61,086 nt of DNA, taken from positions 1 through 61,086 of the IMG/VR virus record IMGVR_UViG_3300046660_000208. One strand, given 5' to 3'. The position numbers and the translations under genes are program-made. The notes beneath the pieces are model-generated. The model searched no databases, had not been told where the DNA came from, and saw only the letters and a list, made by a program, of their open reading frames with translations. Below are positions 2 to 52,495 of the stretch, one piece after another; positions within the stretch are counted from its first letter, which is position 1, and each line of letters starts with the position of its first letter. Source of the DNA: a virus.

Positions 2-844
2 CTTTATGAAGATTTCTTTGAAGAGAAGAAGGCGAAGAAGAAAGACAGCATCAAAATCTACTCCTTGACCAAGGATTGGGTGCAGCATCTGAAAGATATG
101 CCGAAGCGGAGCCGCGAAGGCGTCTTCATCTCTCCAGACGTTCTTGAGCACATTGAAAAAAGAATTAAGTTCTTTCAAAATAATAGAGCTTGGTATGAGG
201 ATCGCGGCATCCCTTATAAGTATGCAATTCTTCTGCACGGTGTTCCCGGAACTGGTAAAACAACATTAGCGAAATATATTGCATCTATTACGAACCGGCA
301 CGTAGTAATGGTAAGCCCGACACGACTCCCCGGTCTGGCGTTAGCGCTAAACGGCATTTATGATCCAGACGACAGGCAGGAACGAGCTTCTTATCTAGGG
401 ATTATGGAAGATATTGACACAGATAACATCACAGCTAAACGGAGTGAAGCACCAGATGATGCCGATGACGATGGTGAAGTGATCGTTGGAAACGATGGCG
501 AAAAGTTCAGCCTGATTACCCTTGCCGATCTCCTGAACGCTATCGATGGGATAAATTCGCCTGAGAATTTCATTCTGGTCGCAACCACTAATCACTTAGG
601 AAAGCTCGATCCTGCGTTGTTCAGGAAGGGTCGCTTCGATGATGTGATTGAAATTAAACCTCTCGAAACACCTGAGATTATCCGCATGGTTAAATTCTTC
701 TTCGAAAGACAAGATGCCAAAGGATTTGCCAAGGAGTATGAGCCGATCCCCGGCGCTGTGTTGCAAGATATTATTCTTCAATATTATGACGACGGTATTG
801 AAAAGACAATAGAGGTTTTGAATGAAAAATTTAGCAGAGTTTGA
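2..844 (+). CDS. BCS1-like AAA ATPase (5' end outside window)
   Basis: The reading frame is open from base 2, so the gene begins before the window; a TTG at 65 is an internal codon and not a convincing start. The visible 281 residues hold one AAA module: Walker A HGVPGTGKTTLAK, Walker B-like GIMEDID, a sensor-1 segment VATTNH and the arginine-finger/sensor region PALFRKGRFDD. The arrangement is that of the BCS1/AAA family (ATP-driven protein remodelling), common in large phages with unknown substrates. An acidic insert lies between Walker B and sensor 1. It overlaps the Thg1-like gene by 23 bases, which suggests translational coupling. Substrate unknown. Confidence 0.8.
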   Translation, partial: LYEDFFEEKKAKKKDSIKIYSLTKDWVQHLKDMPKRSREGVFISPDVLEHIEKRIKFFQNNRAWYEDRGIPYKYAILLHGVPGTGKTTLAKYIASITNRHVVMVSPTRLPGLALALNGIYDPDDRQERASYLGIMEDIDTDNITAKRSEAPDDADDDGEVIVGNDGEKFSLITLADLLNAIDGINSPENFILVATTNHLGKLDPALFRKGRFDDVIEIKPLETPEIIRMVKFFFERQDAKGFAKEYEPIPGAVLQDIILQYYDDGIEKTIEVLNEKFSRV

Positions 845-1595
845 TTATCTTAAGGCTCTTGAAAAATCTTATGAAGATTACGTCCCTGACCATTTTTATA
901 TGATCGCTCGACTGGATGGACATGCGTTTCACACATTCACCAGAGGTTTGAAACGTCCGTTCGATCAGACCCTGCGTGAAACCATGGCTGATGTTACCAA
1001 GAGCTTGATGGAAAAGTTTGGCGCGACAGAGGCGTTTACCCAATCAGATGAAATCACTTTGATTTGGAAGCCCCGCATGAATCGCAACGAGACAGCCTTG
1101 GTGCCGCATCCGCATAAGGGACGTGTGGCCAAACTGTGCTCCCTAATGTCGAGCCATTGCAGCGTTGAATTTTATAAATTAATTCATCAGTACCATGACG
1201 GTAGATATGACGGTTTTGATTGCCGCATTTATGGCGGCTCTGAAAAGACCGCAACTGATTCACTTCGGTTCAGGTTCATTGATGCTGCATGCAACGCGTA
1301 TCAGCAAGTGGCTCAATCAATCTGGTCACCTAAACGACTTCACGGCATGTCGGTCCAAGACATTAAAACCGCGCTGCGTGAAGAGGTTTTGATAAATCCT
1401 TTTGAAGCATATGGCGATGACGCTATGCTCGGAGTGTGGTTCTATAAGGAAGATATCACAACGACTAGCTCGCCCATGGAACTTTGGGGTAAAGAAGCGG
1501 TGATGATCCAAAGGACTGGAAGGCAAAGGATCGTCCGATCCAACGGCGCAGAAATGATGAAGAGGATTAAAGAGAATGCTTTATTGGAGAGTTGA
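822..1595 (+). CDS. Thg1-like 3'-5' nucleotide-adding polymerase (tRNA-His guanylyltransferase family)
   Basis: 257 aa. The family's metal-binding carboxylates are visible: D32 in RLDGHAFHTFTRG and D76/E77 in TQSDEITL, with the downstream GCRIYGG-type region present as DCRIYGGSEKT. Eukaryotic Thg1 adds G-1 to tRNA-His; bacterial and archaeal Thg1-like proteins mainly repair 5'-truncated tRNAs using template-directed 3'-5' addition. In this genome a tRNA-His gene with G-1 already encoded lies at 46230-46306, so repair of damaged tRNA 5' ends is the more likely role (inference). It overlaps the AAA gene upstream and the 68-aa gene downstream, so it sits inside an operon. Confidence 0.9.
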   Translation: MKNLAEFDYLKALEKSYEDYVPDHFYMIARLDGHAFHTFTRGLKRPFDQTLRETMADVTKSLMEKFGATEAFTQSDEITLIWKPRMNRNETALVPHPHKGRVAKLCSLMSSHCSVEFYKLIHQYHDGRYDGFDCRIYGGSEKTATDSLRFRFIDAACNAYQQVAQSIWSPKRLHGMSVQDIKTALREEVLINPFEAYGDDAMLGVWFYKEDITTTSSPMELWGKEAVMIQRTGRQRIVRSNGAEMMKRIKENALLES

Positions 1596-1787: not shown

Positions 1788-1822
1788 GACCCTCCCCAAA
1801 TTAATTTAAATTGGGGAAGGTC
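1788..1822 (+). terminator. hairpin terminator after the AAA/Thg1 operon
   Basis: Inverted repeat GACCCTCCCCAAATT ... AATTGGGGAAGGTC with one internal mismatch. A T-rich tract follows only after a few bases. It separates the upstream operon from the promoter at 1825. Confidence 0.6.
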
Positions 1823-4606: not shown

Positions 4607-4807
4607 ATGAAAATTATCGGGAAAAATAAGTACGGAAGAGCTAAGGTTGCTGATATTTTAATCGCTGAAAACGTCGATCCCACTTACGCTTGGACCATGG
4701 CTGATCACCTGAACGGACAAAACTACATCGGGCAAGACAGCGAAACTTTTTTTAATGTTGAAAGAGATGATTACGTCCTCTGGTCCGGTGAAAAAATAAT
4801 TAAATGA
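4607..4807 (+). CDS. small hypothetical protein
   Basis: 66 aa starting MKIIGKNKYGRAKVADILIAEN. The stop overlaps the Nudix gene start by 4 bases (ATGA type), pointing to coupled translation. No recognised domain. Confidence 0.6.
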   Translation: MKIIGKNKYGRAKVADILIAENVDPTYAWTMADHLNGQNYIGQDSETFFNVERDDYVLWSGEKIIK

Positions 4808-5265
4808 CTTTACAAATTAAAAAATATGTGTTAGGGTTTGCATTCTGGCGTGATCAAGTCGCTTTGATTTATAAAACCAAAGGTCCTGAATATGTCATCG
4901 GGACATGGAACGGGATCGGCGGCAAAATCGAAGATACTGACCTAAGTATTTATCACGCCATGTCCAGAGAATTTTTGGAAGAAACCGGCGTACCCATCAT
5001 CCCCGGTCTGTGGCAGCATTTCGCCACGCAGTCTGGCCTGTCATGGGACGCGGTTGGTTACGAGCTTAATTGCTTTCGTATCTTCCTAAATCCTGATCAG
5101 GAATTTTTCTATCACATTGTGAATACAGAAGGCGACGGAGAAGAAGTGGCTTGGTGGGATTATCGTGACGTAAACTTTGACAAATTCTGTACCCCAAATC
5201 TTCAATGGATCATCCCGCTCGCTCTGGATAAGACAACGGGCTTTTTGGAGATTAACGAACGGTGA
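4804..5265 (+). CDS. Nudix hydrolase
   Basis: 153 aa. The Nudix box is readable as GGKIEDTDLSIYHAMSREFLEETGV; the loop between GGK and REFLEE is one residue longer than in the common box, but the REFLEETGV helix with the catalytic EE pair is intact. Members cleave nucleoside diphosphates linked to another moiety, such as 8-oxo-dGTP, ADP-ribose or mRNA caps; substrate cannot be read from sequence. It lies in the early operon, overlapping both neighbours by 4 bases. Confidence 0.9.
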   Translation: MTLQIKKYVLGFAFWRDQVALIYKTKGPEYVIGTWNGIGGKIEDTDLSIYHAMSREFLEETGVPIIPGLWQHFATQSGLSWDAVGYELNCFRIFLNPDQEFFYHIVNTEGDGEEVAWWDYRDVNFDKFCTPNLQWIIPLALDKTTGFLEINER

Positions 5266-5441: not shown

Positions 5442-5716
5442 TGTATTCAATTAGATACCTCCTCAAAAAAGACGGCTCACAGATCGCGTTCTGGAATTAC
5501 AATGCCAGTGACAACCTGTCCAAAGCACTTGAACTGGCTTACAAATTCGGAACAGTGAATAACAATACGGTTATTTCGAATTCTGGCTGGATCAAGGAAG
5601 ATGTGAATTTTTATAGAATGAAAATTACCTACGCCGCTACTCTTCCCGACGATACTAATTTCTCATTGCACATCTCTGTGTCCCTCACCAGTGAGACGCA
5701 TAAATCAAATGTCTAA
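5441..5716 (+). CDS. 91-aa hypothetical protein
   Basis: Start taken as the ATG at 5441 that overlaps the previous stop (TAATG); an in-frame ATG at 5423 would overlap by 19 bases. Begins MYSIRYLLKKDGSQIAFWNY. The stop overlaps the ATG of the disrupted DUF4326 frame at 5716 in the same TAATG manner. No known domain. Confidence 0.55.
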   Translation: MYSIRYLLKKDGSQIAFWNYNASDNLSKALELAYKFGTVNNNTVISNSGWIKEDVNFYRMKITYAATLPDDTNFSLHISVSLTSETHKSNV

Positions 5717-5841
5717 TGTCAAAGGTTCACAATAAGTATCACAACACCGCCCCTAACGGGGCCGTATATTGCGGTCGTGGCTCAGCGTATGGAAACCCTT
5801 TCATCATCGGAAAAGATGGTGATCGTGACACGGTATGCGAC

Positions 5842-5871
5842 AACCTTCTTCAAATTGATTTGAAGAAGGTT
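5842..5871 (+). repeat. perfect 14-bp palindrome inside DUF4326
   Basis: AACCTTCTTCAAAT - TG - ATTTGAAGAAGGTT, no mismatches, 2-base loop. It coincides with the first break of the DUF4326 frame; the excess over the family sequence is 29 bases (5845-5873). Confidence 0.9.
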
Positions 5872-5939
5872 AATTTGAAACTTTAATTCTTCCTACTCTC
5901 GATGTATCAGATTTGAAAGGTAAAGATTTGGTTTGCTTA

Positions 5940-5970
5940 GTCGTGAAAACAATTAAATTGTTTTTACAAC
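5940..5970 (+). repeat. second palindrome inside DUF4326
   Basis: GTCGTGAAAACAATT - A - AATTGTTTTTACAAC: 13 Watson-Crick pairs, one G-T and one C-A. It coincides with the second break of the DUF4326 frame. Its sequence is unrelated to the first palindrome, but size and architecture are alike. Confidence 0.85.
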
Positions 5971-6031
5971 AAGCAAGCCGAAACGTTGCCACTGTGATGC
6001 TATTCTATTAAAAGCTAATAAAGAAGAAAAA

Positions 6032-6781
6032 ATGGTACACCAATCTACAGGAGAATTCTGGCACGGAGATTGTCTAGAATTAATGAAAGATATTCCAGAT
6101 GGCTCGATAGATATGATCTTGTGTGATCTTCCGTATGGTACAACTCAAAATAAATGGGACGCGGTCATTCCTTTTGAACCTTTATGGAAGCAATATTGGC
6201 GAGTGTGTAAACCAACAGCTATGATTGCTCTAACCGCAAGTCAACCTTTTACCAGTGCTTTAGTTATGTCTCAGCCAAAGTTTTTTAAACACGAATGGAT
6301 TTGGATAAAAAATAGAGGAAGTAATTTTGCCAATACTGTTAGAGAACCAATGAAAGAGCATGAAAGCGTTCTAATGTTCTCTAAGGGAAAGTGGGTTTAC
6401 AACAAACAGATGCAGCCAAGAACAGGTGGTGGTTTAGACATGGTGGGGGCGGTGAAGAAGGATAAAGGCGGCAAAACAGATAATTTCGGTAAGTTTGAAG
6501 GTATAGATATCACCCTGTCTGAATTAAGGGTTCCATCATCTTGGCAAAAATTTAATTGCGAGGTGGGGATTCACCCGACACAAAAGCCCGTCCCTTTGTT
6601 CGAGTATTTAATTAAAACTTACACGAACGAGGGTGAAACGGTTCTTGATAATACCGCTGGGTCGGGAACTACAGCTATAGCCGCGATCAATACAAACCGA
6701 AATTGGATTTGTATTGAGAAAGATGAAAAATATTACAATAGCGCTTGTGATAGAATCGAAAACCATAAGAAGAAAAAATGA
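6032..6781 (+). CDS. DNA methyltransferase (N4-cytosine/N6-adenine, DPPY type)
   Basis: 249 aa. The catalytic motif is DLPYGTT in DMILCDLPYGTTQNKWD near the N-terminus; the AdoMet-binding motif NTAGSGTTAIAA is near the C-terminus, preceded by HPTQKPVPLFEYLI. This catalytic-before-AdoMet order is that of beta-class amino methyltransferases. It could protect phage DNA against host restriction; no restriction partner is seen. The gene is noticeably more AT-rich than its neighbours, suggesting recent acquisition, and its frame is open upstream into the DUF4326 remnant. The stop overlaps the DNA polymerase start (ATGA). Confidence 0.9.
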   Translation: MVHQSTGEFWHGDCLELMKDIPDGSIDMILCDLPYGTTQNKWDAVIPFEPLWKQYWRVCKPTAMIALTASQPFTSALVMSQPKFFKHEWIWIKNRGSNFANTVREPMKEHESVLMFSKGKWVYNKQMQPRTGGGLDMVGAVKKDKGGKTDNFGKFEGIDITLSELRVPSSWQKFNCEVGIHPTQKPVPLFEYLIKTYTNEGETVLDNTAGSGTTAIAAINTNRNWICIEKDEKYYNSACDRIENHKKKK

Positions 6782-8871
6782 AACTTAGAACAGCTTTATT
6801 CGACATTGAAGGCGATGGCCTCCTAAACAGCAAGTTCGTGAAGCACGAAGACGTTTTGGTTGAAATTCCAGCCATGACAAAGATTCACTGTCTCTGCATC
6901 ACTGAATTTGAAACTGGACGTAAATTTAAATTTGTAGGCCGGGAAGAAATTGAAAAAGGAGTCCGCCTCCTTGAAGACGCTGAAATGGTCGTGGGTCATA
7001 ACATTCTAGACTTCGACTTGCGCGCCATTGCTAGAGTTTTTCCTTGGTTCGAATTTACCGGTAGGGTGCGTGACACTCTTGTCATGACACGTCTGATGTT
7101 TTCGCATCAGAAGGAACTAGATTTCCGTCTCCACGAGCGAGACAGGCTTCCGTCTAAATTCATTGGCCGTCACAGCCTCGACAGTTGGGGCTATAGAATC
7201 GGCAAATGGAAAGGTGACTATTCGGAACAGAAAGAAAAAGAAGCAAAGGCTCTTGGCATTACTGATCCACTAGGAATCCACCTCCATGTATGGGGCACTT
7301 ACAATGAAGAGATGGGCGAATACTGCGAAAACGACGTTGACGTTACGGAAGAGCTTTGGAAGATGCTATTGGAGCAGAACTATCCAGAATTCCCAATCGT
7401 GTTTGAACATCAAATCGCGGATCGTCTGATCCAGCAAGAAGATAATGGATTCCCTTTTAACACTGAAGCCGCTGACAAACTCAGACTAGAGCTTGAAGAA
7501 TACCGCGAAAATATCAGGGTAGAGTGTGAGACAAAATTCCCCGGCAGGATGGAAGCGCAAAAGTATACCACATACGGTAAGCTACGCGAAGAATATAATG
7601 CAGTGGATTGGGACACGGTTAATAATTTAGAACTGGAAGACGCGGTCTACGAAATGCTGGCGAATTATCCTAGCGATAAAGAAACGCCGCAGATTATGAT
7701 TCCCAAAAGAACTATTAGATACAAAGACATAGCTAAGGGCGATAGGACCGCTGGTGCGCCATATACGCCAGTCTTCTATAAGGATTTCAATGCAGGCTCG
7801 CGCCAGCAAGTCGCGGAACGTCTCATTGAACTTGGATGGAGACCTGAAGAATTTACCGAAACGGGTCAGCCACAGGTAAACGAAGTTACGCTAAAGAACG
7901 CGGCGGATAATATTCCAATCGCAAAATCTCTGGCTGATTATTTCGGGGTGCAGAAAACCTTGGGACAGCTTGCAGAGGGCGATAACGGTTGGCTCAAGCT
8001 TGTCACTGGCGAGAATAAAATCCATCACCACGTCAATCCTTGTGGCGCTGTAACGGGTCGTTGTACCCACGCCAATCCTAATCTAGGTCAAGTACCCTCT
8101 ATCTCGAAAAATAAGGATAAGCAAATCCTTATGGGCCGAGACGGCGGTTGGGGTTTTGAATGCCGCTCATTGTTCCACGTTCTGCCTCCCTTCGTAATGA
8201 TGGGAAGTGACTTGAGTGGTATCGAGCTTCGTTGCTTGGCCCACTACATGGCTGAATTTGATGACGGTGAATATGGCCGCGAACTGCTTGAAGGCGATAT
8301 CCACACCGTTAATCAGATGGCAGCTGGACTAGAAACCCGCGAGCAAGCCAAAACTTTCATATACGCCACGTTGTATGGGGCCGGTCCTGCAAAGATAGGT
8401 AGTATTGTTCTACCCTTCGCATCTGAGGCAGAGCAAACCCGCGTGGGTAAAGAACTTCTAGATCGATTCCTTCGCAACATGCCAGCGCTAAAGAAGCTGA
8501 TGAAAAAGCTTAAGGCTGAAGCAAGACGTGGATTTATCGAAGGCATTGATGGCCGTCGTCTCTATATCAGGGCGCAGCACGCAGCACTCAATACCTTGCT
8601 TCAAAACGCTGGTGCCATGCTAGCTAAGAAATGGTATCTCCTGTTTGAGGAATTCATGGAGAATCGCGGATACGTTCATTCGTGGGAACAAGACTTCGCC
8701 ATGATGGCTTTCGTTCATGACGAAATTCAGGTCGCAGTATTGGAAGAGATTGCACAAATTGCTGGTGAAACTTCGGTTGAAGCCGCCGCTGCATCTGGCG
8801 ATTTCTTTAAATTCAAATTGCCTGTCGCGGCTGAGTTTAAAATCGGAACGAATTGGGCACTTACGCACTGA
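6778..8871 (+). CDS. family A DNA polymerase, T7 type
   Basis: 697 aa, close to T7 gp5 (704 aa). An N-terminal 3'-5' exonuclease domain shows FDIEGDG (residues 8-14), VGHNILDFDLR and YCENDVDVT. The polymerase domain shows motif A DLSGIELRCLAHY (about 478-490), motif B REQAKTFIYATLYGAG (about 520-535, nearly the T7 O-helix, including the Tyr at the T7 Y526 position) and motif C FVHDEIQV (about 643-650). It is the replicative enzyme; a separate primase-helicase is not in the window. T7 pol recruits host thioredoxin; whether this one does cannot be told. Confidence 0.95.
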   Translation: MKLRTALFDIEGDGLLNSKFVKHEDVLVEIPAMTKIHCLCITEFETGRKFKFVGREEIEKGVRLLEDAEMVVGHNILDFDLRAIARVFPWFEFTGRVRDTLVMTRLMFSHQKELDFRLHERDRLPSKFIGRHSLDSWGYRIGKWKGDYSEQKEKEAKALGITDPLGIHLHVWGTYNEEMGEYCENDVDVTEELWKMLLEQNYPEFPIVFEHQIADRLIQQEDNGFPFNTEAADKLRLELEEYRENIRVECETKFPGRMEAQKYTTYGKLREEYNAVDWDTVNNLELEDAVYEMLANYPSDKETPQIMIPKRTIRYKDIAKGDRTAGAPYTPVFYKDFNAGSRQQVAERLIELGWRPEEFTETGQPQVNEVTLKNAADNIPIAKSLADYFGVQKTLGQLAEGDNGWLKLVTGENKIHHHVNPCGAVTGRCTHANPNLGQVPSISKNKDKQILMGRDGGWGFECRSLFHVLPPFVMMGSDLSGIELRCLAHYMAEFDDGEYGRELLEGDIHTVNQMAAGLETREQAKTFIYATLYGAGPAKIGSIVLPFASEAEQTRVGKELLDRFLRNMPALKKLMKKLKAEARRGFIEGIDGRRLYIRAQHAALNTLLQNAGAMLAKKWYLLFEEFMENRGYVHSWEQDFAMMAFVHDEIQVAVLEEIAQIAGETSVEAAAASGDFFKFKLPVAAEFKIGTNWALTH

Positions 8872-46050: not shown

Positions 46051-46135
46051 TGGTGCGGGTAGAGGGACTCGAACCCCCACGCACAAGGCACAAGTTTCTA
46101 AAACTTGCGTGGCTACCAAATTACACCATACCCGC
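46051..46135 (-). tRNA. tRNA-Leu (UAG)
   Basis: Acceptor GCGGGTA/TACCCGC, A73, CCA encoded. Anticodon stem CAAGT/ACTTG, loop TTTAGAA. Long variable arm (class II), T-loop TTCGAGT. Confidence 0.88.
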
Positions 46136-46136
46136 G

Positions 46137-46209
46137 TACTCCCTGATGGATTTGAACCACCGAATGTCTGGATGTAAACCAGATGCCTTAACCGCTTGGC
46201 GAAAGGAGC
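46137..46209 (-). tRNA. tRNA-Val (UAC)
   Basis: Anticodon stem TCTGG/CCAGA, loop TTTACAT; T-loop TTCAAAT. CCA is not encoded, unlike its neighbours. One base separates it from the tRNA-Leu gene. Confidence 0.88.
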
Positions 46210-46229
46210 GTGTTAAATTTTATAATCTT

Positions 46230-46306
46230 TGGACCGTCTTCCTTGGATTGAACAAGGATATCGCGATCCACAATCGCGCGCTCTAACCAATTGAGCTAAA
46301 GACGGC
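46230..46306 (-). tRNA. tRNA-His (GUG)
   Basis: Anticodon stem CGCGA/TCGCG, loop TTGTGGA. Acceptor CCGTCTT/AAGACGG with an extra G encoded at -1, opposite U73 (not the usual C73), then CCA. The combination G-1:U73 is unusual and relevant to the Thg1-like gene at 822. Confidence 0.88.
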
Positions 46307-46309
46307 TGT

Positions 46310-46383
46310 TGGTTCAGGATGATGGATTCGAACCACCATAACGAGTACCAAAAACTCGCGCCTTACCATTAGACGAATCCTGA
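46310..46383 (-). tRNA. tRNA-Gln (UUG)
   Basis: Acceptor TCAGGAT/ATCCTGA (U1-A72 typical for Gln), A73, CCA encoded; anticodon loop TTTTGGT in stem CGAGT/ACTCG. Confidence 0.9.
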
Positions 46384-46390
46384 TTATTAC

Positions 46391-46498
46391 TTACTTATAG
46401 CGCTCAAGTATATTGGAAAGACCCGCGCCGGGAGGTTGATAAGATGCGCAAGCCGTTACACTAAAGGTGAGGAAGAGAATTACAAATACTTTAAACAT
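46391..46498 (-). CDS. 35-aa mini-lipoprotein
   Basis: ATG at 46498 with GGAAG upstream, overlapping the end of the next gene. MFKVFVILFLTFSVTACASY: signal peptide with lipobox VTAC (Cys17), and a mature tail of only 19 residues (CASYQPPGAGLSNILERYK). Entericidin-like in size. Function unknown; could act in envelope modification. Confidence 0.6.
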   Translation of the reverse strand: MFKVFVILFLTFSVTACASYQPPGAGLSNILERYK

Positions 46499-46673
46499 TT
46501 TCTATTGCTTCCAATTTCTTTTTAGCTTTTTCAATCCCTGCTTCGGCAAAATCTAATAAATATTCGGGGTGACTATCGTCTTTGTCGTGCTCAAGGAAGA
46601 TTTTAAGGTTCCAAATCGCACACTGAATATCGTCTCGATAATGATCGCCGTCTGGTAACGCGAAAAGTCCCAT
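46491..46673 (-). CDS. 60-aa acidic protein
   Basis: ATG at 46673 behind TTTAGGAAATGTT; a longer frame would run into the tRNA-Tyr gene. MGLFALPDGDHYRDDIQCAIW followed by a helical Lys/Glu-rich end. Unknown function. Confidence 0.6.
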   Translation of the reverse strand: MGLFALPDGDHYRDDIQCAIWNLKIFLEHDKDDSHPEYLLDFAEAGIEKAKKKLEAIENV

Positions 46674-46688
46674 AACATTTCCTAAATT

Positions 46689-46771
46689 TGGTGGACGTAG
46701 ATGGAGTTGAACCACCAAGCCTTAAGGACCGGAGCTACAATCCGGCGGGCCTGCCAATGCCCAATACGTCC
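46689..46771 (-). tRNA. tRNA-Tyr (GUA)
   Basis: Acceptor GGACGTA/TACGTCC, A73, CCA encoded; anticodon stem CCGGA/TCCGG with loop TTGTAGC; long variable arm as normal for bacterial Tyr. Confidence 0.9.
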
Positions 46772-46777
46772 TTATCT

Positions 46778-47161
46778 TTAAATAGCGTCTGGATGCTTTT
46801 CCAGTAGTTTCTTCAACTGCTCAATCTCTTTGGCTTTAGCCTTAGCGGCTTTCTTTTCTGCCGATTCGGCTTGCTTTCGCTTGGCTTCGGCTTTCCGTTC
46901 TAGTTCCGCTTTAACCGCTCTAGCTACTTCATCTTTGATGGACTTAATTGCTTGGAGCGCTCCACCTTCAGGCTCGCGTACCAGAATATACTGCTGAGTA
47001 TGGTTATTAACTCTTTGCAGCACATGAAGATTTTGTCTTATAAATTCAAAATCCTCTTCAGAAATTTCTTCCCAATCTGAGATTCCTTGAGTTAGTATTT
47101 GCTCGCAGTCATAATCATCCAAGTGTCTATCGATATACATAAACAATTTAACTTTGACCAT
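46778..47161 (-). CDS. 127-aa protein with C-terminal coiled coil
   Basis: Begins MVKVKLFMYIDRHLDDYDCE; residues ~75-125 are Lys/Ala/Glu-rich (KAEAKRKQAESAEKKAAKAK), a strong coiled coil. Lies between two tRNA genes. No domain recognised. Confidence 0.65.
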   Translation of the reverse strand: MVKVKLFMYIDRHLDDYDCEQILTQGISDWEEISEEDFEFIRQNLHVLQRVNNHTQQYILVREPEGGALQAIKSIKDEVARAVKAELERKAEAKRKQAESAEKKAAKAKAKEIEQLKKLLEKHPDAI

Positions 47162-47177
47162 GACAATCTCCTAAAAT

Positions 47178-47264
47178 TGGCTGGGGAGGCCGGATTCGAA
47201 CCGGCGACGGGCTTTCGCCAATGGATTAACAGTCCATCCCCTGCTACCGCTCGGGTACTCCCCA
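47178..47264 (-). tRNA. tRNA-Asn (GUU) with class II body
   Basis: Acceptor TGGGGAG/CTCCCCA, G73, CCA encoded; anticodon stem ATGGA/TCCAT, loop CTGTTAA. The variable region is 15 bases with its own GGC-GAAA-GCC arm and the D-arm is CCC/GGG, so the body looks Ser/Leu-like. Bacterial tRNA-Asn normally has a 5-base variable loop. Confidence 0.82.
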
Positions 47265-47274
47265 TTATTTTTTC

Positions 47275-47303
47275 ATATTAACACGAAGATTCGTATTTGT
47301 CAA
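47275..47303 (-). promoter_or_regulatory. internal promoter of the tRNA array
   Basis: On the - strand TTGACA, 17 bases, TAATAT, about ten bases before the tRNA-Asn 5' end. Overlaps the small frame 47278-47373. Confidence 0.75.
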
Positions 47304-47373
47304 CCAATTTAACTAACTCTTGATAGGAAAGTGAACTCTTAGTCTTCTTTCTGTTATTGTCAGAGAACGACAT
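47278..47373 (-). CDS. 31-aa small protein
   Basis: ATG at 47373 overlaps the stop of the zinc-finger peptide (TAATG). MSFSDNNRKKTKSSLSYQEL, ends DKYESSC. Coupled translation is plausible, or it is the remnant of a longer zinc-finger gene. Confidence 0.4.
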   Translation of the reverse strand: MSFSDNNRKKTKSSLSYQELVKLVDKYESSC

Positions 47374-47492
47374 TAACTCACAATCATGCCTGAGTGGGGA
47401 GATTTACCTTTACTAGGGCCGTGAATTCTTTTATGGCCATTTAAAGCTTGTGTAGTTCTAAACTGTTTATCACATAAATTACAATTAAACAT
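47373..47492 (-). CDS. 39-aa C2H2 zinc-finger peptide
   Basis: MFNCNLCDKQFRTTQALNGH then KRIH: exact C-x2-C-x12-H-x3-H spacing of a classical C2H2 finger, with a QALNGH helix reminiscent of the plant QALGGH type. C-terminal tail GPSKGKSPHSGMIVS. No good Shine-Dalgarno. Probably binds DNA or RNA; single-finger peptides occur in phages. Confidence 0.65.
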   Translation of the reverse strand: MFNCNLCDKQFRTTQALNGHKRIHGPSKGKSPHSGMIVS

Positions 47493-47516
47493 ATACTATA
47501 AATTAATTTTTAAAAT

Positions 47517-47607
47517 TGGCGGAAGGTGCGAAGATTCGAACTCGCGGTCCCTTTTCAGGGACACTTCTTTAGCAAAGAAGCGGTTTAGGCCTCTCACCCA
47601 ACCTTCC
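47517..47607 (-). tRNA. tRNA-Ser (GCU)
   Basis: Acceptor GGAAGGT/ACCTTCC, G73, CCA encoded; anticodon stem CTTCT/AGAAG, loop TTGCTAA; long variable arm with GTCCC/GGGAC. Confidence 0.9.
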
Positions 47608-47612
47608 AAATT

Positions 47613-47687
47613 TGGAGACTAGGGCCAGTCTCGAACTGGCACGTGACGGCTTTGCAGGCCGTTGCATAACCCTTCTGCCTCCTAGTC
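47613..47687 (-). tRNA. tRNA-Cys (GCA)
   Basis: Acceptor GACTAGG/CCTAGTC, U73 as expected for Cys, CCA encoded; anticodon stem ACGGC/GCCGT, loop CTGCAAA. Confidence 0.9.
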
Positions 47688-47690
47688 GAA

Positions 47691-48302
47691 TTAAATGCTA
47701 GTCTTACCTGTCGCCATGGCACGATCTTCGTCACTGAAACCTAAATTGGCATCAGAGCCCCACTGCTCATAATACATACTGCGGTTTGCAACAGATTTAA
47801 ATGCCTGCTCGTAATTACCTTTGGTCATGTTAAGAGTTGAGCCGGTTAGAACACCTAGCCCGCTGCTCTGGCCGAATGCATCAAAATCAGCGCCGATGAA
47901 TACAACGTCGTAACCAGTTGTTTTGAAGTTATCAAGAATTGTTTTCGTGCCATTCTTATCAAATTCGCGGCTCGCATTTTCAAGGCCGTCAGTAACGATA
48001 ATGATTGAAGCCTTCTTAGGAGCCTTAAGTGTTAGAAGCTGATTCAGCGCGCCAATCGCATCGAACAATGGCGTCATACCACGTGGCAATACTTCTGTGG
48101 CTGAAATCGGATTCCAATCCTTAAGCTTTACGTCTTTTCTAATAACCTTAAACGGTTCTTGATTATCAAAAACTGTTACAGATACTGAAGCCTTAGTCTT
48201 AGCTTCTTTCAAAGCTGTGACATAAGCATTTACAGCGCCGATAGTTTCATCCCAACGAGACTGCATCGAACCGGAACGGTCAATCAAAATTTCTACTTGC
48301 AT
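47691..48302 (-). CDS. von Willebrand factor A domain protein (TerY-like)
   Basis: 203 aa. Starts with the MIDAS motif MQVEILIDRSGSMQSRWDE (DxSxS), later GMTPLFDAIG (MIDAS Thr) and IIIVTDGLENAS (MIDAS Asp). This single-domain vWA type resembles TerY proteins, which bind partners through a metal ion in tellurite/stress and conflict-related systems. No partner genes of those systems are seen here. It lies between tRNA-Cys and tRNA-Ser. Confidence 0.85.
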   Translation of the reverse strand: MQVEILIDRSGSMQSRWDETIGAVNAYVTALKEAKTKASVSVTVFDNQEPFKVIRKDVKLKDWNPISATEVLPRGMTPLFDAIGALNQLLTLKAPKKASIIIVTDGLENASREFDKNGTKTILDNFKTTGYDVVFIGADFDAFGQSSGLGVLTGSTLNMTKGNYEQAFKSVANRSMYYEQWGSDANLGFSDEDRAMATGKTSI

Positions 48303-48327
48303 TATAAGTCCTTTGTCGAGTTAGTTA

Positions 48328-48419
48328 TGGCGGAAGGGGTGGGATTCGAACCCACGGAACCCTCTCGGGTCCTTCGGTTTTCAAGACCGACTCAATCGGC
48401 CAGACTCTGACACCCTTCC
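48328..48419 (-). tRNA. tRNA-Ser (UGA)
   Basis: Acceptor GGAAGGG/CCCTTCC, G73, CCA encoded; anticodon stem TCGGT/ACCGA, loop CTTGAAA; variable arm GGACCC/GGGTTCC. Confidence 0.9.
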
Positions 48420-48423
48420 ATTA

Positions 48424-48505
48424 TGGAGCACGCCGAGGGACTCGAACCCCCATTCTCGTTCCAGTTAGCTTAGTCATCGTTCGTAGCGATGCGGCATAGG
48501 CGTGC
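48424..48505 (-). tRNA. aberrant tRNA-like gene lacking a D-arm (loop reads ACG)
   Basis: Perfect acceptor GCACGCC/GGCGTGC, U73, CCA encoded, normal T-arm with TTCGAGT. The only strong anticodon-like hairpin is CATCG-CTACGAA-CGATG, but just seven bases (TATGCCG) separate it from the acceptor, so no D-arm fits, while 23 bases lie between it and the T-arm. Those 23 bases contain AGCTAACTGGAACGAG, which looks like a D-arm in the wrong place. If the hairpin is the anticodon arm it would read Arg CGU. Confidence 0.5.
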
Positions 48506-48510
48506 ATTAA

Positions 48511-48888
48511 TTAAATATGTGTAATCTTTTTCGCATCTCTGAGGAAAACTTCTGCGCCAATATCCTGCGGCTCAAAATATTCTCTAACGAGATTAATTAC
48601 TTCATTTTCATCATAGTCTTTACAGCTGAAAATGTCAAGATAGAAATCACCGTCATGATCGACAAAGTGACCAGTAATATTTGACGTTTCGATCATTTGA
48701 ATAAATGAAATGCCTGCCTTGACCGGATCGTGAGTGGCGAAACGCTCGATCCAGAGCGGGCCGTATTTAACCATGTCAATCTTTACCACTAGCTCATCAA
48801 CGAACTTAGCGATGTGTTCTTTAGACGTTACGGCAGGGATAGACCCGGCCCGCGCATCAATAATTAGGTGTTTTCCCCAATACTGCAT
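48511..48888 (-). CDS. S-adenosylmethionine decarboxylase-like pyruvoyl enzyme (SpeD/SpeH fold)
   Basis: 125 aa. Starts MQYWGKHLIIDARAG; the segment IQMIETSNITGHFVDHDGDF followed by YLDIFSCKDYDENEV matches the AdoMet decarboxylase core, with a Glu-Thr-Ser at the self-cleavage position and the conserved Cys in the FSCK strand. Known enzymes make decarboxylated AdoMet for spermidine; some phage relatives decarboxylate ornithine or arginine. Either way it points to polyamine metabolism during infection. Confidence 0.75.
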   Translation of the reverse strand: MQYWGKHLIIDARAGSIPAVTSKEHIAKFVDELVVKIDMVKYGPLWIERFATHDPVKAGISFIQMIETSNITGHFVDHDGDFYLDIFSCKDYDENEVINLVREYFEPQDIGAEVFLRDAKKITHI

Positions 48889-49175
48889 TAGATTTCCTCT
48901 AGAACTTCAACGTTAAAGCCCTGACGCTTCGAACCAAAAGGATAAGCCTTACCGAGATTAACTACCGGCGCGTAACGCTCGTGGCGAGGCTTGACATAGG
49001 CCTGATATGCCCTAACAGCTTTACCTTCTTCGTTCCTAAAAACTGTGACGCGGCCTTCTACGAGTTGATCCAGAGGATGGACCTTGTATCCTTCGCTCTT
49101 CTTAGTCTCAGCTACAACAGTGGTAGATACCGTGGCTGTTTCGCCTTCACGTAGTGTAACACTTACATCTTCCAA
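48888..49175 (-). CDS. 95-aa hypothetical protein
   Basis: Begins MEDVSVTLREGETATVSTTVV; beta-rich with VFRNEEGKAVRAYQAYVKPRHERYAP. Its stop overlaps the decarboxylase ATG, so they may be co-translated. No domain recognised. Confidence 0.6.
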   Translation of the reverse strand: MEDVSVTLREGETATVSTTVVAETKKSEGYKVHPLDQLVEGRVTVFRNEEGKAVRAYQAYVKPRHERYAPVVNLGKAYPFGSKRQGFNVEVLEEI

Positions 49176-49209
49176 AATACTTTATCCTTTTTAATTTCTA
49201 ATTTTTAAT

Positions 49210-49284
49210 TGGCACGACGCTCGGAACTCGAATCCGGTTTCTCGGTTTTGGAGACCGACGTTTTACCGCATAAACTATCGCCGC
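49210..49284 (-). tRNA. tRNA-Trp (CCA)
   Basis: Anticodon stem TCGGT/ACCGA, loop CTCCAAA; G73, CCA encoded. The acceptor has two G-U pairs and an A-G mismatch and the T-stem one mismatch, so it is a somewhat degenerate gene. Confidence 0.78.
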
Positions 49285-49287
49285 AAA

Positions 49288-49364
49288 TGGTGGAACAGAA
49301 TGGAATCGAACCACTGACCTTCTGAGCTTCAATCAGACACTCTACCAGACTGAGTTACTGTTCC
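49288..49364 (-). tRNA. tRNA-Phe (GAA)
   Basis: Acceptor GGAACAG/CTGTTCC, A73, CCA encoded; anticodon stem TCTGA/TCAGA, loop TTGAAGC; T-loop TTCGATT. Its first ten bases also encode the end of the 49355-49522 frame. Confidence 0.92.
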
Positions 49365-49522
49365 GAGATTAATTTTCGATAATATTCTATGGAAAAGTAA
49401 TATGTTTTCCCATTCGTATCGTAAGCCATGACGAAGCATAGCCAAACTTTTCGAGTAATACCATCACCCTGATAAGCCTTCACAGGTGACCAAGCGAACC
49501 GTTTTCTATAGGCGTAGTTCAT
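49355..49522 (-). CDS. 55-aa basic protein
   Basis: MNYAYRKRFAWSPVKAYQGD then a beta-rich end (CFVMAYDTNGKTYYFSIEYY). ATG 49522 preferred over an in-frame TTG at 49540. The stop falls inside the tRNA-Phe gene. Function unknown. Confidence 0.5.
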   Translation of the reverse strand: MNYAYRKRFAWSPVKAYQGDGITRKVWLCFVMAYDTNGKTYYFSIEYYRKLISEQ

Positions 49523-49550
49523 TAATGAGACTCGCTTCAAACTTAAATTT

Positions 49551-49625
49551 TGGAGCGGGTGAATGGTATCGAGCCATCCTCTTCAGTTTGGAAAACTGAG
49601 GCCCATCCATCTAGACCACACCAGC
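49551..49625 (-). tRNA. tRNA-Gly (UCC)
   Basis: Anticodon stem TCAGT/ACTGA, loop TTTCCAA; acceptor GCTGGTG/CACCCGC with one T-C mismatch; U73 and CCA encoded; T-loop CTCGATA. Confidence 0.82.
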
Positions 49626-49771
49626 AAATTCTGTGACGGTTACTACCCCTCCGTCGTAGCTATTTCGTTGCTACAGATGTTCCAGTGGTTGGACGGATCG
49701 TTTCAAGTGAGACACCCGTAGGCCCTCGAAACAGGGTTGCAACGATCAAACTACTTGATCCTGTTCTGGAA
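49626..49771 (-). ncRNA. structured non-coding segment between tRNA-Gly and tRNA-Thr
   Basis: No reading frame of note. On the - strand: GATCAA-gtag-TTTGATC, then a 7-bp stem GATCGTT/AACGATC closing CCCT-gtttcg-AGGG, then CCGTC/GACGG closing GTAGC-aacgaaata-GCTAC. The nested helices suggest a folded RNA of about 120 bases. No known RNA family recognised. Confidence 0.45.
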
Positions 49772-49854
49772 TGGTGCTGGACACAGGATTCGAACCTGCG
49801 ACGTGGGATTCTTCCTTACAAGAGAAGCGCTTTCGACCGCTCAGCCAATCCAGC
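49772..49854 (-). tRNA. tRNA-Thr (UGU) with extended variable loop
   Basis: Acceptor GCTGGAT/GTCCAGC, A73, CCA encoded; anticodon stem CTTCT/GGAAG, loop CTTGTAA. The D-arm GCTGAGCGGTCGAAAGC is Ser-like and the variable region is 11 bases (AATCCCACGTC), long for Thr. Confidence 0.82.
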
Positions 49855-49867
49855 ATAGGAAAGACGC

Positions 49868-50194
49868 TTACGCGTCGATCCACTTAAAAATGTCTTCCCT
49901 AGTGATTTGCTTATCACCGTACTTATTAACCATGGCGAGTACGCGAGGCACAATAACAACCACTAGCTTATTGCTGCTGTGGATTTTTACCTCTACGGAC
50001 TTGTAAGCCCTGCCATCTAGAAACGCACGAGCTAAGAATGTGGCTCGATTTTCGTTCCTAACGTCCCATGTCCTATGTTGTCTCAGGGACCAGAACGCGG
50101 GCTTATTTTTTGCTTTTTGTTTCCTCTCTTCGAAACGGATAATTTTTGCTTCTTCAGTGAGGTGCTTAGATTTAACTTTAAGTTCGATACTCAT
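49868..50194 (-). CDS. 108-aa basic protein, unknown
   Basis: Begins MSIELKVKSKHLTEEAKIIR; very basic first half (RFEERKQKAKNKPAF, LRQHRTWDVRNENRATFLAR), C-terminal helical end QITREDIFKWIDA. Own promoter at 50204-50232. A nucleic-acid-binding role is suggested by charge only. Confidence 0.65.
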   Translation of the reverse strand: MSIELKVKSKHLTEEAKIIRFEERKQKAKNKPAFWSLRQHRTWDVRNENRATFLARAFLDGRAYKSVEVKIHSSNKLVVVIVPRVLAMVNKYGDKQITREDIFKWIDA

Positions 50195-50203
50195 TTGTAT
50201 TCT

Positions 50204-50232
50204 CCATTAGATTATTTGATTGCCATTGTCAA
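50204..50232 (-). promoter_or_regulatory. promoter for the 50194-49868 gene
   Basis: On the - strand CTTGACA, 17 bases, TAATGG (weak -10). Confidence 0.55.
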
Positions 50233-50333
50233 GTGATTATTTGACGATTTAAGGTGGCCCTCTAATGGAAAGTATTAATGTTTTTTCAAGCTACGTGTTA
50301 TCGCCCATTTTTAAATCCTTTATATGGGTAGTT

Positions 50334-50407
50334 TGGTGGGATTACCCGGAATCGAACCGAGGTAAAAGAGTTTAGAATTCCCTGCTCTACCATTGAGCTA
50401 TAATCCC
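50334..50407 (-). tRNA. tRNA-Arg (UCU), anticodon register ambiguous
   Basis: Acceptor GGGATTA/TAATCCC, A73, CCA encoded, D-arm GCTC/GAGC, T-loop TTCGATT. With stem AGGGA/ACTCT the loop is ATTCTAA and reads UCU (Arg); with the standard base 26 the stem is GGGAA/CTCTT and the loop TTCTAAA reads CUA (amber). The first has better pairing and a 5-base variable loop; both have a mismatch at 31-39. Confidence 0.75.
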
Positions 50408-50475
50408 TTTGGTCGAGGCTTCGCACCCCGTTGTCGATTGTCCCTTTTAACTACAGGCCTATCGATAATGCCAAT

Positions 50476-50556
50476 TGGTCTGAGTGGCAAGGATTTGAAC
50501 CTGCGACCTTCCTCTTGAATGGTCGAGGATGCTCTGTCCCGCTGAGCTACACCCAA
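50476..50556 (-). tRNA. tRNA with a 10-base anticodon loop (identity unclear)
   Basis: Acceptor TTGGGTG/CACTCAG (two wobble pairs), A73, CCA encoded; canonical D-arm GCTC/GAGC; anticodon stem TCCTC/GAGGA encloses GACCATTCAA, ten bases instead of seven; T-stem GCAGG/CCTTGC has a bulged T. Possible readings include UUC (Glu, with A33) or UCA (opal, with U33). Confidence 0.65.
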
Positions 50557-50589
50557 GTCATAAATTCAGTTGGTGATGATAATATCAAC

Positions 50590-50940
50590 TCAAGAAAAAT
50601 GTTTTTCCATGTGACACCTACAACAAAGTAGTATACATTTTTCTGCTTCGTTCAAGTAAGTTTCCCATGAAAGTTTGACCGCGTCGGAAGCGTTCATTTC
50701 TTTATTAGGATCAGGATGGTGCCACTCCAATGCGGCTCCTATTTTGTCATACCCACATTCTTGACAACCAATGTTTATTTTATGATTGCGCATCCTTTGT
50801 GAATACAAATGGTGCCGTAAGTTTTTTCGTTCTTGTTTAGAAAGTCCTTCGGGCATACAATCAAAACAAAATTTTCTGTTTGTTCCACCTGAGCCTTTTC
50901 TATTTGGTTCAAAATTTTTTGAGCAATAATCACAAAACAT
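50590..50940 (-). CDS. HNH endonuclease with zinc knuckles
   Basis: 116 aa from ATG 50940 (GGAA upstream; 50946 also possible). N-terminal zinc knuckle CDYCSKNFEPN ... FCFDC, then IGCQECGYDKIGAALEWHHP (HNH His pair) and CILLCCRCHMEKH. Homing-type endonuclease in the tRNA array. Confidence 0.8.
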   Translation of the reverse strand: MFCDYCSKNFEPNRKGSGGTNRKFCFDCMPEGLSKQERKNLRHHLYSQRMRNHKINIGCQECGYDKIGAALEWHHPDPNKEMNASDAVKLSWETYLNEAEKCILLCCRCHMEKHFS

Positions 50941-50957
50941 TATCATTTCCAAAATTA

Positions 50958-51034
50958 TGGTCGGAGTGATCAGGATCGAACTGATGACCTTACCGCCCCA
51001 AACGGTACGCGCTACCAGACTGCGCTACACTCCG
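50958..51034 (-). tRNA. tRNA-Pro (UGG)
   Basis: Acceptor CGGAGTG/CACTCCG (C1-G72 typical for Pro), A73, CCA encoded; anticodon stem TACCG/CGGTA, loop TTTGGGG. Confidence 0.92.
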
Positions 51035-51050
51035 TATTCTTTTATTGTGG

Positions 51051-51119
51051 GGCACCAGTACCTAATAAAATCAACTCAGATGCAGTGAGTTAAAGATCAG
51101 GTTTGCATCCCGGTGCCTC
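51051..51119 (-). tRNA. possible degenerate tRNA-like element
   Basis: On the - strand GCACCGG/CTGGTGC can form an acceptor stem followed by C and CCA; AACTCA-CTGCATC-TGAGTT resembles an anticodon arm (GCA, U33 present); only 15 bases follow where variable loop and T-arm should be. A competing hairpin GATGCA/TGCATC overlaps it. May be a decayed tRNA or another RNA. Confidence 0.3.
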
Positions 51120-51127
51120 CCAATAAA

Positions 51128-51190
51128 AGAATGTGCTAGGACGAACGAGTTACCGGCGTACCTGTAACTTCATTCTAAAGACGCCTAGCC
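51128..51190 (-). ncRNA. small structured element
   Basis: GCTAGG/CCTAGC encloses AGTTAC-aggtacgccg-GTAACT on the - strand. No tRNA features besides a CCTAGCA end. Unassigned. Confidence 0.35.
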
Positions 51191-51203
51191 GCCTTCTCAT
51201 TCA

Positions 51204-51344
51204 TTACAGAATAGAATTCTGCCTAGCAATTTCCCTGATATCACATCGTGAGATACCAAGATCGGCAAGTTCCCTATTTGTCAAACGCTCTAGCTCACGA
51301 ACCGTTTGACGCTGCTTCTTCCACTTATTGAGAAAATTGAACAT
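51204..51344 (-). CDS. DUF1127 (YjiS-like) small protein
   Basis: 46 aa, ATG at 51344 behind AAGGATTAAC. The DUF1127 core is clear: QTVRELERLTNRELADLGIS followed by RCDIREIAR. DUF1127 proteins are abundant in alphaproteobacteria, where some tune sRNA-linked phosphate and carbon metabolism. In a phage it was probably acquired from the host. Located in the tRNA array between tRNA-Ile and tRNA-Pro. Confidence 0.88.
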   Translation of the reverse strand: MFNFLNKWKKQRQTVRELERLTNRELADLGISRCDIREIARQNSIL

Positions 51345-51648
51345 GTTAATCCTTGTAATGTTCTAGTTTTCTCCTCCACTGATCTTCTCCCAATATAAAT
51401 TGGAGAAAGACTGTATTGCTTCCCATGCAATTAAATCACCAAGGGCACTTAAACTATCTGTAAAGAAAGGTGTTTACAGAGTAGAGCGGGACGGTCCACA
51501 ATTCCAAAAGGCTTTTACGAAGAGCTTCCCCATTACTCACCTAATGTCGTTTTATCTAGTTCGGTGTACGCCGATCATTCCCTCAACAGCCCTTATCGCT
51601 ATGATTTGGCACATCGTACAACGTACCGGCTTATAGCTATGGTGAACT
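51345..51648 (-). other. 304-base gene-free stretch with hairpins
   Basis: No convincing gene. On the - strand three consecutive hairpins precede DUF1127: CTGTAAA/TTTACAG, ATTGC/GCAAT and TTCTCCAAT/ATTGGGAGAA (one bulge); a further CGG-CCG hairpin lies nearer tRNA-Ile. Could be a leader or an RNA gene. Confidence 0.4.
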
Positions 51649-51725
51649 TGGTATCAGTGACTTGACTTGAACAAATGACCTCTTCCTTATCAGGGAAGTG
51701 CTCTAACCAACTGAGCTACACTGAC
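51649..51725 (-). tRNA. tRNA-Ile (GAU)
   Basis: Acceptor GTCAGTG/CACTGAT (G-U at the end), A73, CCA encoded; D-arm GCTC/GAGC; anticodon stem CTTCC/GGAAG, loop CTGATAA; T-loop TTCAAGT. Confidence 0.9.
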
Positions 51726-51726
51726 A

Positions 51727-52007
51727 AACTGTTTCTGAAGGCAGGTTTATGACTAACCTTATTTAAGTGAGGCGGACAGTACGCGACATCACCCTTCAAA
51801 ACTTTTTGTTTCTGAGCCTTCACCCTCTAGCTTTCTGCAAGACCTAGGATGACCTTCGCCGCAAATTGCGTCCAATTCGCTGACACCGTTTACCAGACCC
51901 CCGAAAGTTTCCAGACTTTCTTCGCGATAACTGACGTGCCGAAGGTGAAGCTCAGAAACAGCACCTTTGATCCTGATATATGACGACTTTGGGCCGCTAA
52001 TTTTGGA
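51727..52007 (-). ncRNA. large structured leader RNA of the tRNA operon
   Basis: Begins about 7 bases past the 52014 promoter. Three domains: GGCACCT/AGGTGCT closing ~40 bases; a ~16-bp long-range helix GTTTCTGAGCTTCACC / GGTGAAGGCTCAGAAAC (one bulge, 51827-51959) closing ~100 bases that contain GAAAGT/ACTTTC; and GAAGG/CCTTC closing an AGGTT/AACCT hairpin. tRNA-Ile follows at once. No coding frame and no known RNA family recognised. Confidence 0.55.
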
Positions 52008-52013
52008 GGTGCC

Positions 52014-52042
52014 ATTATTGTGGTTGATTTGGTTTGTGTCAA
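52014..52042 (-). promoter_or_regulatory. promoter of the structured RNA and tRNA-Ile
   Basis: On the - strand GTTGACA, 17 bases, AATAAT. Confidence 0.7.
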
Positions 52043-52101
52043 CGGTTTACAACCATCCGCATGTCTAGGATTGTTCCAGTAGTGCCGGAACCGTGCCAGA
52101 T

Positions 52102-52212
52102 TTACTTGCTTGCTTGAGATTTACTTGAGGCTGGTCTAACTTCTACGCCATTAATAAAAACAGCGACGTACTTAGTGCCATCAAGATTAATAATTTCTTT
52201 AGTCGTTACCAC
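52102..52212 (-). CDS. 36-aa small protein
   Basis: GTG start at 52212 overlapping the end of the upstream gene; reads VVTTKEIINLDGTKYVAVFI then NGVEVRPASSKSQASK. Beta-hairpin-like. It is a plausible coupled small gene, not recognised. Confidence 0.4.
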   Translation of the reverse strand: MVTTKEIINLDGTKYVAVFINGVEVRPASSKSQASK

Positions 52213-52402
52213 GAGTCACCTCTCCATAAAATTTCAGGTGAATGATGGTTCTTCCGGTCGGGTACGGATAACCATCATCCCCATCTACATATTCTCTTTC
52301 GATATTTACGTCCCTTACATTAACTCTCTTACCGTCTAGAATAACGTTAAAGCTTTTGGCTTCATCTGGATCAGCCGGAATTGAATTAATATAAAGATTC
52401 AT
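52199..52402 (-). CDS. 67-aa hypothetical protein
   Basis: ATG at 52402; the longer frame to 52489 runs through the tRNA-Met gene and is rejected. MNLYINSIPADPDEAKSFNV, beta-rich, ends TIIHLKFYGEVTRGND. Directly downstream of tRNA-Met on the same transcript. Confidence 0.6.
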   Translation of the reverse strand: MNLYINSIPADPDEAKSFNVILDGKRVNVRDVNIEREYVDGDDGYPYPTGRTIIHLKFYGEVTRGND

Positions 52403-52418
52403 TTCACACTCTATGTTT

Positions 52419-52495
52419 TGGTTGCGGGTGTCAGAATCGAACTGACGTGATTGGCTTATGAGACCATGCTGGAACCGCCTCCAGTCCAACCCGCA
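52419..52495 (-). tRNA. tRNA-Met (CAU)
   Basis: Acceptor TGCGGGT/ACCCGCA, A73, CCA encoded; anticodon loop CTCATAA; D-arm CTGGA/TCCAG; T-stem GTCAG/CTGAC. A CAU anticodon could also be a lysidine-modified Ile tRNA; initiator features (C1-A72 mismatch) are absent. Confidence 0.82.

What the first reader, a model, noticed from the sequence alone, without database searches (positions are those of the whole stretch)
5716..6031. DUF4326 gene broken by two ~30-base palindromes, each shifting the frame by -1
Seen: three pieces of one DUF4326 protein lie in three frames (VYCGRGSAYGNPF..RDTVCDN; FETLILPTLDVSDLKGKDLVC; KPKRCHCDAILLKAN). The joins coincide with two hairpins, 5842-5871 (14-bp perfect) and 5940-5970 (15-bp with two imperfect pairs). 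The extra lengths are 29 and about 32 bases, both leaving remainder 2 on division by 3. Two unrelated palindromes at two frame breaks in one gene are unlikely by chance. Options: a tiny hairpin mobile element, quasipalindrome-templated mutation, or translational bypass elements like the T4 gene 60 hop or the byps of yeast mitochondria. Matching take-off and landing codons were not found, which weakens the bypass option.
Basis: partly seen in the sequence, partly recalled or inferred. Interest (0 to 1): 0.82.

Follow-up and report, generated by a model that had tools for sequence, protein, structure and literature searches.

The report
Phage gene broken by two hairpins
A small phage domain that relatives carry intact at the front of their DNA polymerase has been cut off by an inserted methylase gene and disrupted by two precise ~30-base hairpin insertions; this most likely shows an unusual fold-back mutation in a gene no longer needed, not a new way of reading genes.

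Summary
Intact relatives show two exact insertions in the window's DUF4326 gene, 29 nt (5843-5871) and 32 nt (5939-5970). Each is a near-perfect palindrome and each shifts the frame. All 51 related loci found are intact. Among 46 insertions of at least 12 nt called between five related contigs (counted per contig pair), these two sites are the only strong palindromes. In four relatives the domain is the N-terminal part of one continuous DUF4326-DNA polymerase ORF. In the window a methyltransferase gene sits in the linker, the polymerase has its own start, and the severed DUF4326 part carries both hairpins.

Bypass is unlikely. [quoted passage not shown] No copy of either hairpin was found in the window, IMG/VR, GTDB genomes, phages or plasmids.

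In both inserts the outermost pairs join a native left-flank dinucleotide to a new right-flank one; at insert 2 native CT became AA. This fits fold-back (template-switch) copying of a short extension of unknown source. Best reading: a dispensable domain inactivated by two fold-back insertions. Interest is moderate.

The parts
5716..5841 (+). DUF4326 piece 1 (frame 1; ORF 5716-5886, 56 aa, ends in TAA inside/after insert 1)
   Evidence: Pfam PF14216 E 4e-7; alignment A1
5782..5841 (+). 60-nt patch only 67-75% identical to all relatives, next to insert 1, in a gene otherwise 94-98% identical to L003
5843..5871 (+). Insert 1, 29 nt, palindrome 5842-5871 (14-bp perfect arms); borders uncertain by about 1 nt
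5874..5936 (+). DUF4326 piece 2 (FETLILPTLDVSDLKGKDLVC), frame shifted by -1
5939..5970 (+). Insert 2, 32 nt, imperfect palindrome; with native flanks a stem over about 5927-5982; native CT before GCAAG replaced by AA
5975..6031 (+). DUF4326 piece 3 (KPKRCHCDAILLKAN and linker), shifted by -1 again, in frame with the methyltransferase
6021..6034 (+). First copy of the direct repeat AAGAAGAAAAAATG at the left edge of the methyltransferase gene
6032..6781 (+). DNA methyltransferase gene (N6_N4_Mtase), absent at this place in L003 and L004
6767..6780 (+). Second copy of the direct repeat AAGAAGAAAAAATG, at the polymerase start
6778..8871 (+). DNA polymerase ORF, separate here; in L003, L004, L005 and L009 continuous with an N-terminal DUF4326 domain

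Best explanation
The DUF4326 part is an inactivated remnant. Shown: in relatives it is the N-terminal part of a DNA polymerase ORF; in this phage a methyltransferase gene sits in the linker, the polymerase ORF stands alone, and the DUF4326 part carries two non-triplet palindromic insertions. Inferred: once cut off from the polymerase the domain was no longer needed, and local replication or recombination errors made the hairpins. In each event the growing strand, read left to right, gained about 15 nt of unknown source, folded back on itself with a 1-2 nt loop, copied that extension plus two bases of the native left flank, and then returned to the template (at microhomology GCAA in the case of insert 2). 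The result is a truncated 56-aa product and no DUF4326 activity.
For: Relatives are intact and share the empty sites. Lengths are not multiples of 3 and no codon pair rescues the frame. The second Cys of the invariant CxC motif is lost in every frame. The domain is severed from the polymerase by the methyltransferase gene. In both inserts the two outermost pairs join a native left dinucleotide (AA, TT) to a new right one (TT, AA), chance about 1 in 256 together, and native CT became AA at insert 2. No flanking direct repeats as a transposon would leave. Template switching is reported to create hairpins of tens of bases by one event (PMC8794818). A divergent 60-nt patch abuts insert 1, which suggests local recombination.
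Against: The arms themselves have no template in the window or in the collections, whereas classic quasipalindrome mutation copies an existing arm. Insert 2's arms differ by two substitutions and one extra base, more change than its flanks show. Two such rare events within 100 nt, with no other stop or frameshift in the pieces, is odd for a decaying gene. Order of events is inferred.
Confidence: 0.6

Rival explanations
1. Small mobile hairpins (REP-like or byp-like DNA elements of the phage, the host or another mobile element) inserted twice into a tolerated gene.
For: Two hairpins of similar size in one gene; both inserts are complete hairpins whose arms are foreign to the relatives' sequence. 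20-40 bp palindromic repeats, some inside genes, are known (PMC3733652).
Against: The two inserts share no sequence; no second copy in the window, 2.9 million viral contigs, 84,980 genomes (exact patterns), phages or plasmids; no target-site duplication; loss of native CT at insert 2; no GTAG or CGTC tag.
Confidence: 0.16
2. Regulatory RNA hairpins that tune expression of the newly acquired methyltransferase gene downstream.
For: A strong RNA hairpin (-26.8 kcal/mol for 5925-5985) lies about 50 nt upstream of the methyltransferase start; the methyltransferase is new at this place; piece 3 runs in frame into it.
Against: No promoter or terminator signal above chance nearby; no Rfam match; the hairpins interrupt DUF4326 coding sequence instead of lying in added leader DNA.
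Confidence: 0.07
3. Programmed translational bypassing: ribosomes skip both hairpins, as in T4 gene 60 or mitochondrial byps, and make a complete domain.
For: The three pieces keep conserved sequence (piece 3 identical in protein to L003 and L004); hairpins sit at both joins; palindromic byps in Magnusiomyces lack perfectly matched codons in several cases (PMC5009743).
Against: No identical take-off and landing codons restore the domain; at insert 1 the codon before the resume site would be TAA; the second Cys of the invariant CxC cannot be recovered at insert 2; two successive hops would be needed; only two inserts, in one gene. Conservation may only mean the inserts are recent.
Confidence: 0.06
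4. Assembly or sequencing artefact in a metagenomic contig.
For: One contig, no reads at hand, near-identical records may be hidden by the tools.
Against: Inserts are exact, local and not copies of other parts of the contig; flanking genes are intact; short-read chimeras do not usually make two different perfect 30-nt hairpins.
Confidence: 0.08

Closest known systems
Template-switch (quasipalindrome-type) hairpin mutations (PMC8794818; Ripley 1982 as cited in PMC6649704)
   Same: Whole hairpins of tens of bases appear in one lineage; the new arm extends into native flank; native bases are replaced near the return point.
   Different: Textbook events copy an arm already present; here neither arm is found in relatives or elsewhere in the window.
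Byps of Magnusiomyces capitatus mitochondria (PMC5009743, PMC6649704)
   Same: Short palindromic inserts that break reading frames inside a gene, with empty sites in relatives.
   Different: Byps occur at 81 places, are transcribed and skipped, and products stay functional; here two inserts in one gene, and an invariant Cys codon is lost.
T4 gene 60 bypass (PMC5009743, PMC11194080)
   Same: Phage gene split by a short non-coding stretch with hairpins that changes the frame.
   Different: Gene 60 has matched GGA codons, a stop after take-off and a nascent-peptide signal; no matched codons that restore the protein here.
29-nt hop reported for the Prevotella loescheii adhesin gene (PMC5009743)
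   Same: A 29-nt interruption in a bacterial-type gene.
   Different: That report concerns a proposed hop with limited follow-up (PMC5009743); no hop is supported here.
REP and CGTC/GTAG palindromic repeats (PMC3733652)
   Same: Hairpins of 20-40 bp that can lie inside genes.
   Different: REPs are multicopy families with a GTAG or CGTC tag; these two are single-copy, unrelated to each other and untagged.

Membership tests
Template-switch hairpin insertion | Empty site in relatives and a new inverted repeat in one lineage | tested here: met
Template-switch hairpin insertion | New sequence is a reverse-complement copy of neighbouring sequence | tested here: inconclusive
   Right arm mirrors left arm and two native flank bases, but the left arm has no local source
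[quoted passage not shown]
Translational bypass (byp type) | Product after skipping keeps the conserved residues | tested here: not met
   second Cys of invariant CxC absent in all frames
Translational bypass (byp type) | Inserts stay in mature RNA and are not translated | not testable with these tools
   needs cDNA and proteomics
Translational bypass (byp type) | Many inserts spread over the genome | tested here: not met
   no other palindromic insert in the regions aligned between related contigs
REP or other mobile palindromic repeat | Several related copies | tested here: not met
   (patterns were near-exact)
REP or other mobile palindromic repeat | GTAG or CGTC end tag | tested here: not met
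   read from the sequence, definition from PMC3733652
DUF4326 (PF14216) | Full domain with the C-x-C ... C-H motif in one frame | tested here: not met
   only the first half scores; motif broken at insert 2; the pieces are clearly derived from the family

The most novel reading that the evidence does not exclude
The two hairpins are phage counterparts of mitochondrial byps: palindromic inserts that ribosomes (or an RNA-level process) skip, making a DUF4326 domain that is here joined in frame to the methyltransferase.
Probability: 0.05. Interest if true: 0.9.

Novelty: new variant of a known kind. Interest (0 to 1): 0.4.

Why it matters
It gives a clean natural case, with empty sites in four relatives, of hairpins of about 30 nt arising whole inside a gene, twice within 100 nt. 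The arms have no visible template, which standard template-switch models do not explain. It also shows a polymerase-fused DUF4326 domain being severed and lost beside a newly gained DNA methyltransferase, which bears on the proposed role of DUF4326 between ADP-ribose signalling and DNA modification (PMC7824862, PMC9503650). If bypass were shown after all, these would be byp-like elements in a phage.

Tried and rejected
[quoted passage not shown] Classic -1 slippery sites: none convincing at either join (my reading of the codons). Separate starts for pieces 2 and 3: no suitable start for piece 2; piece 3 only lies in the methyltransferase frame. Terminators or promoters: none above chance. Rfam: only tRNAs. 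Donor of the hairpins: none found; the Lactobacillus phage LP65 match (E 0.1) lies in a tail fibre gene and is taken as chance. Hairpins travelling in with the methyltransferase: not supported, since the inserts lie separated within native DUF4326 sequence. Solved structures: no sequence hit and no confident fold match, so the published rhodanese-phosphatase proposal could not be confirmed here, although the AlphaFold model is confident (pLDDT 96.8). An early idea that both inserts sit in strong native hairpins was weakened: site 2 folds only weakly in relatives and no fold is predicted at site 1 in L003.

Full report
What is there. The window is a whole 61,086-base IMG/VR record. At 5716-6031 three pieces of one DUF4326 domain lie in three frames. 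Related viral contigs L003, L004 and L005 carry the domain at the syntenic place in one frame, and L009 does too. Alignment shows two exact gaps in the relatives, 29 nt and 32 nt long (same lengths by blastn). Both coincide with the palindromes and both leave remainder 2 on division by 3.

More than chance. Hairpin 1 has perfect 14-bp arms (DNA-fold z -7.1). Hairpin 2, with its flanks, is an imperfect stem over about 5927-5982 (z -4.0); no shuffle folds as well. In pairwise alignments among the window and four related contigs, 46 insertions of at least 12 nt were called, counting each contig pair separately; the two sites here are the only strong palindromes, and every other insertion scores 5 or less. 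The 51 DUF4326 loci recovered from IMG/VR each match the query as one unbroken segment, one of them (L057) only over its last 16 residues.

Setting. In L003, L004, L005 and L009 the DUF4326 domain reads without a stop into the DNA polymerase, as open frames of 817, 831, 769 and 911 codons. In the window a DNA methyltransferase gene (PF01555) sits in the linker, with the direct repeat AAGAAGAAAAAATG at both ends. The polymerase ORF starts at its own ATG, and the last DUF4326 piece is in frame with the methyltransferase. DUF4326 has been predicted to link ADP-ribose signalling with DNA modification and has been reported fused to replication and restriction-modification parts (PMC7824862; PMC9503650). 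A Nudix gene lies just upstream at 4804-5265.

Details of the inserts. At insert 1 the two closest relatives read GACAA or GATAA, then G or A, then TTTGAA; the window reads GACAA, the hairpin ending in TT, then AATTTGAA. At insert 2 relatives read GCTTCTGCAAG or GCTTCTGCAAA; the window reads GCTT, the hairpin, then AAGCAAG. In both, the outermost two pairs join a native left dinucleotide (AA, TT) to a new right one (TT, AA), and at insert 2 the native CT is gone. This is what a strand that folded back and copied itself into its own left flank would leave (inference). The left arms have no source in the window or in the collections searched. The gene is otherwise 94-98% identical to L003, except for a 60-nt patch at 67% that ends where insert 1 begins. 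This suggests local recombination, though L003 and L004 also differ more there than elsewhere in the domain.

Is the product rescued? No identical codon pair restores the domain. If reading resumes at the first F of piece 2, the landing codon would be TAA. All relatives tested have C-[FWH]-C (51 of 51), and both Cys are invariant in a 29-sequence alignment. At insert 2 the second Cys codon is absent in every frame; a hop could give LVC-L-S-KPKR at best. This argues against a functional bypass but does not exclude it, because the role of that Cys is not known; no solved relative was found.

Reading. The simplest account is a domain severed from its polymerase by a methyltransferase gene and inactivated by two hairpin insertions of fold-back type. 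Template switching is reported to create hairpin stems of tens of bases in one event (PMC8794818). The unusual points are the untemplated arms, the two events within 100 nt, and the lack of other damage. These keep a mobile hairpin (0.16) and, weakly, bypass (0.06) open. Byps of Magnusiomyces mitochondria are the closest system in appearance (PMC5009743; PMC6649704), but the features that could be tested here were not met.

Limits. One contig, no reads, host unknown. Near-identical records may be hidden by the tools, and collection searches for the hairpins used near-exact patterns. The order of events (methyltransferase first, hairpins later) is inferred.

Noticed in passing
L026 2191-2220, L029 2691-2714, L031 2681-2706, L041 2691-2714, L043 2689-2716, L044 2684-2709, L048 2682-2711, L049 1071-1098; also L033 1138-1162, L035 789-813: Genes that join a ParB-like part and an HTH-like part to DUF4326 carry a coding, in-frame near-perfect palindrome of 24-30 bp at about the same place in a hypervariable linker; sequences differ between relatives but stay palindromic, as if a DNA or RNA element inside the gene were maintained. 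No paper found. Domain names are my reading of the sequence.
   Followed up: partly
L051 9-36 and 176-205: Two coding palindromes of 28 and 30 bp in one open frame, at the repeated peptides ATLVANLPKAS and ATLLAHGPEAF.
   Followed up: no
window 50334-50407 (- strand), in the tRNA cluster 46051-52495: Seventeen tRNA genes including one with anticodon CTA (amber), while only 1 of 72 chosen ORFs ends in TAG: possible amber suppression or recoding.
   Followed up: no
window 6021-6034 and 6767-6780: The direct repeat AAGAAGAAAAAATG flanks the methyltransferase gene that splits the DUF4326-polymerase fusion of relatives.
   Followed up: partly
window 5782-5841: A 60-nt patch 67-75% identical to all relatives lies next to insert 1 in a gene otherwise nearly identical to L003; most codon changes in piece 1 are synonymous.
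   Followed up: partly
window 1788-1822: An intergenic imperfect palindrome of 35 bp (17-nt arms) with a promoter-like TTGACT just after it.
   Followed up: no
window 822-1595: Thg1-like tRNA(His) guanylyltransferase (PF04446, E 4e-26) in a phage that also carries a tRNA-His gene.
   Followed up: no
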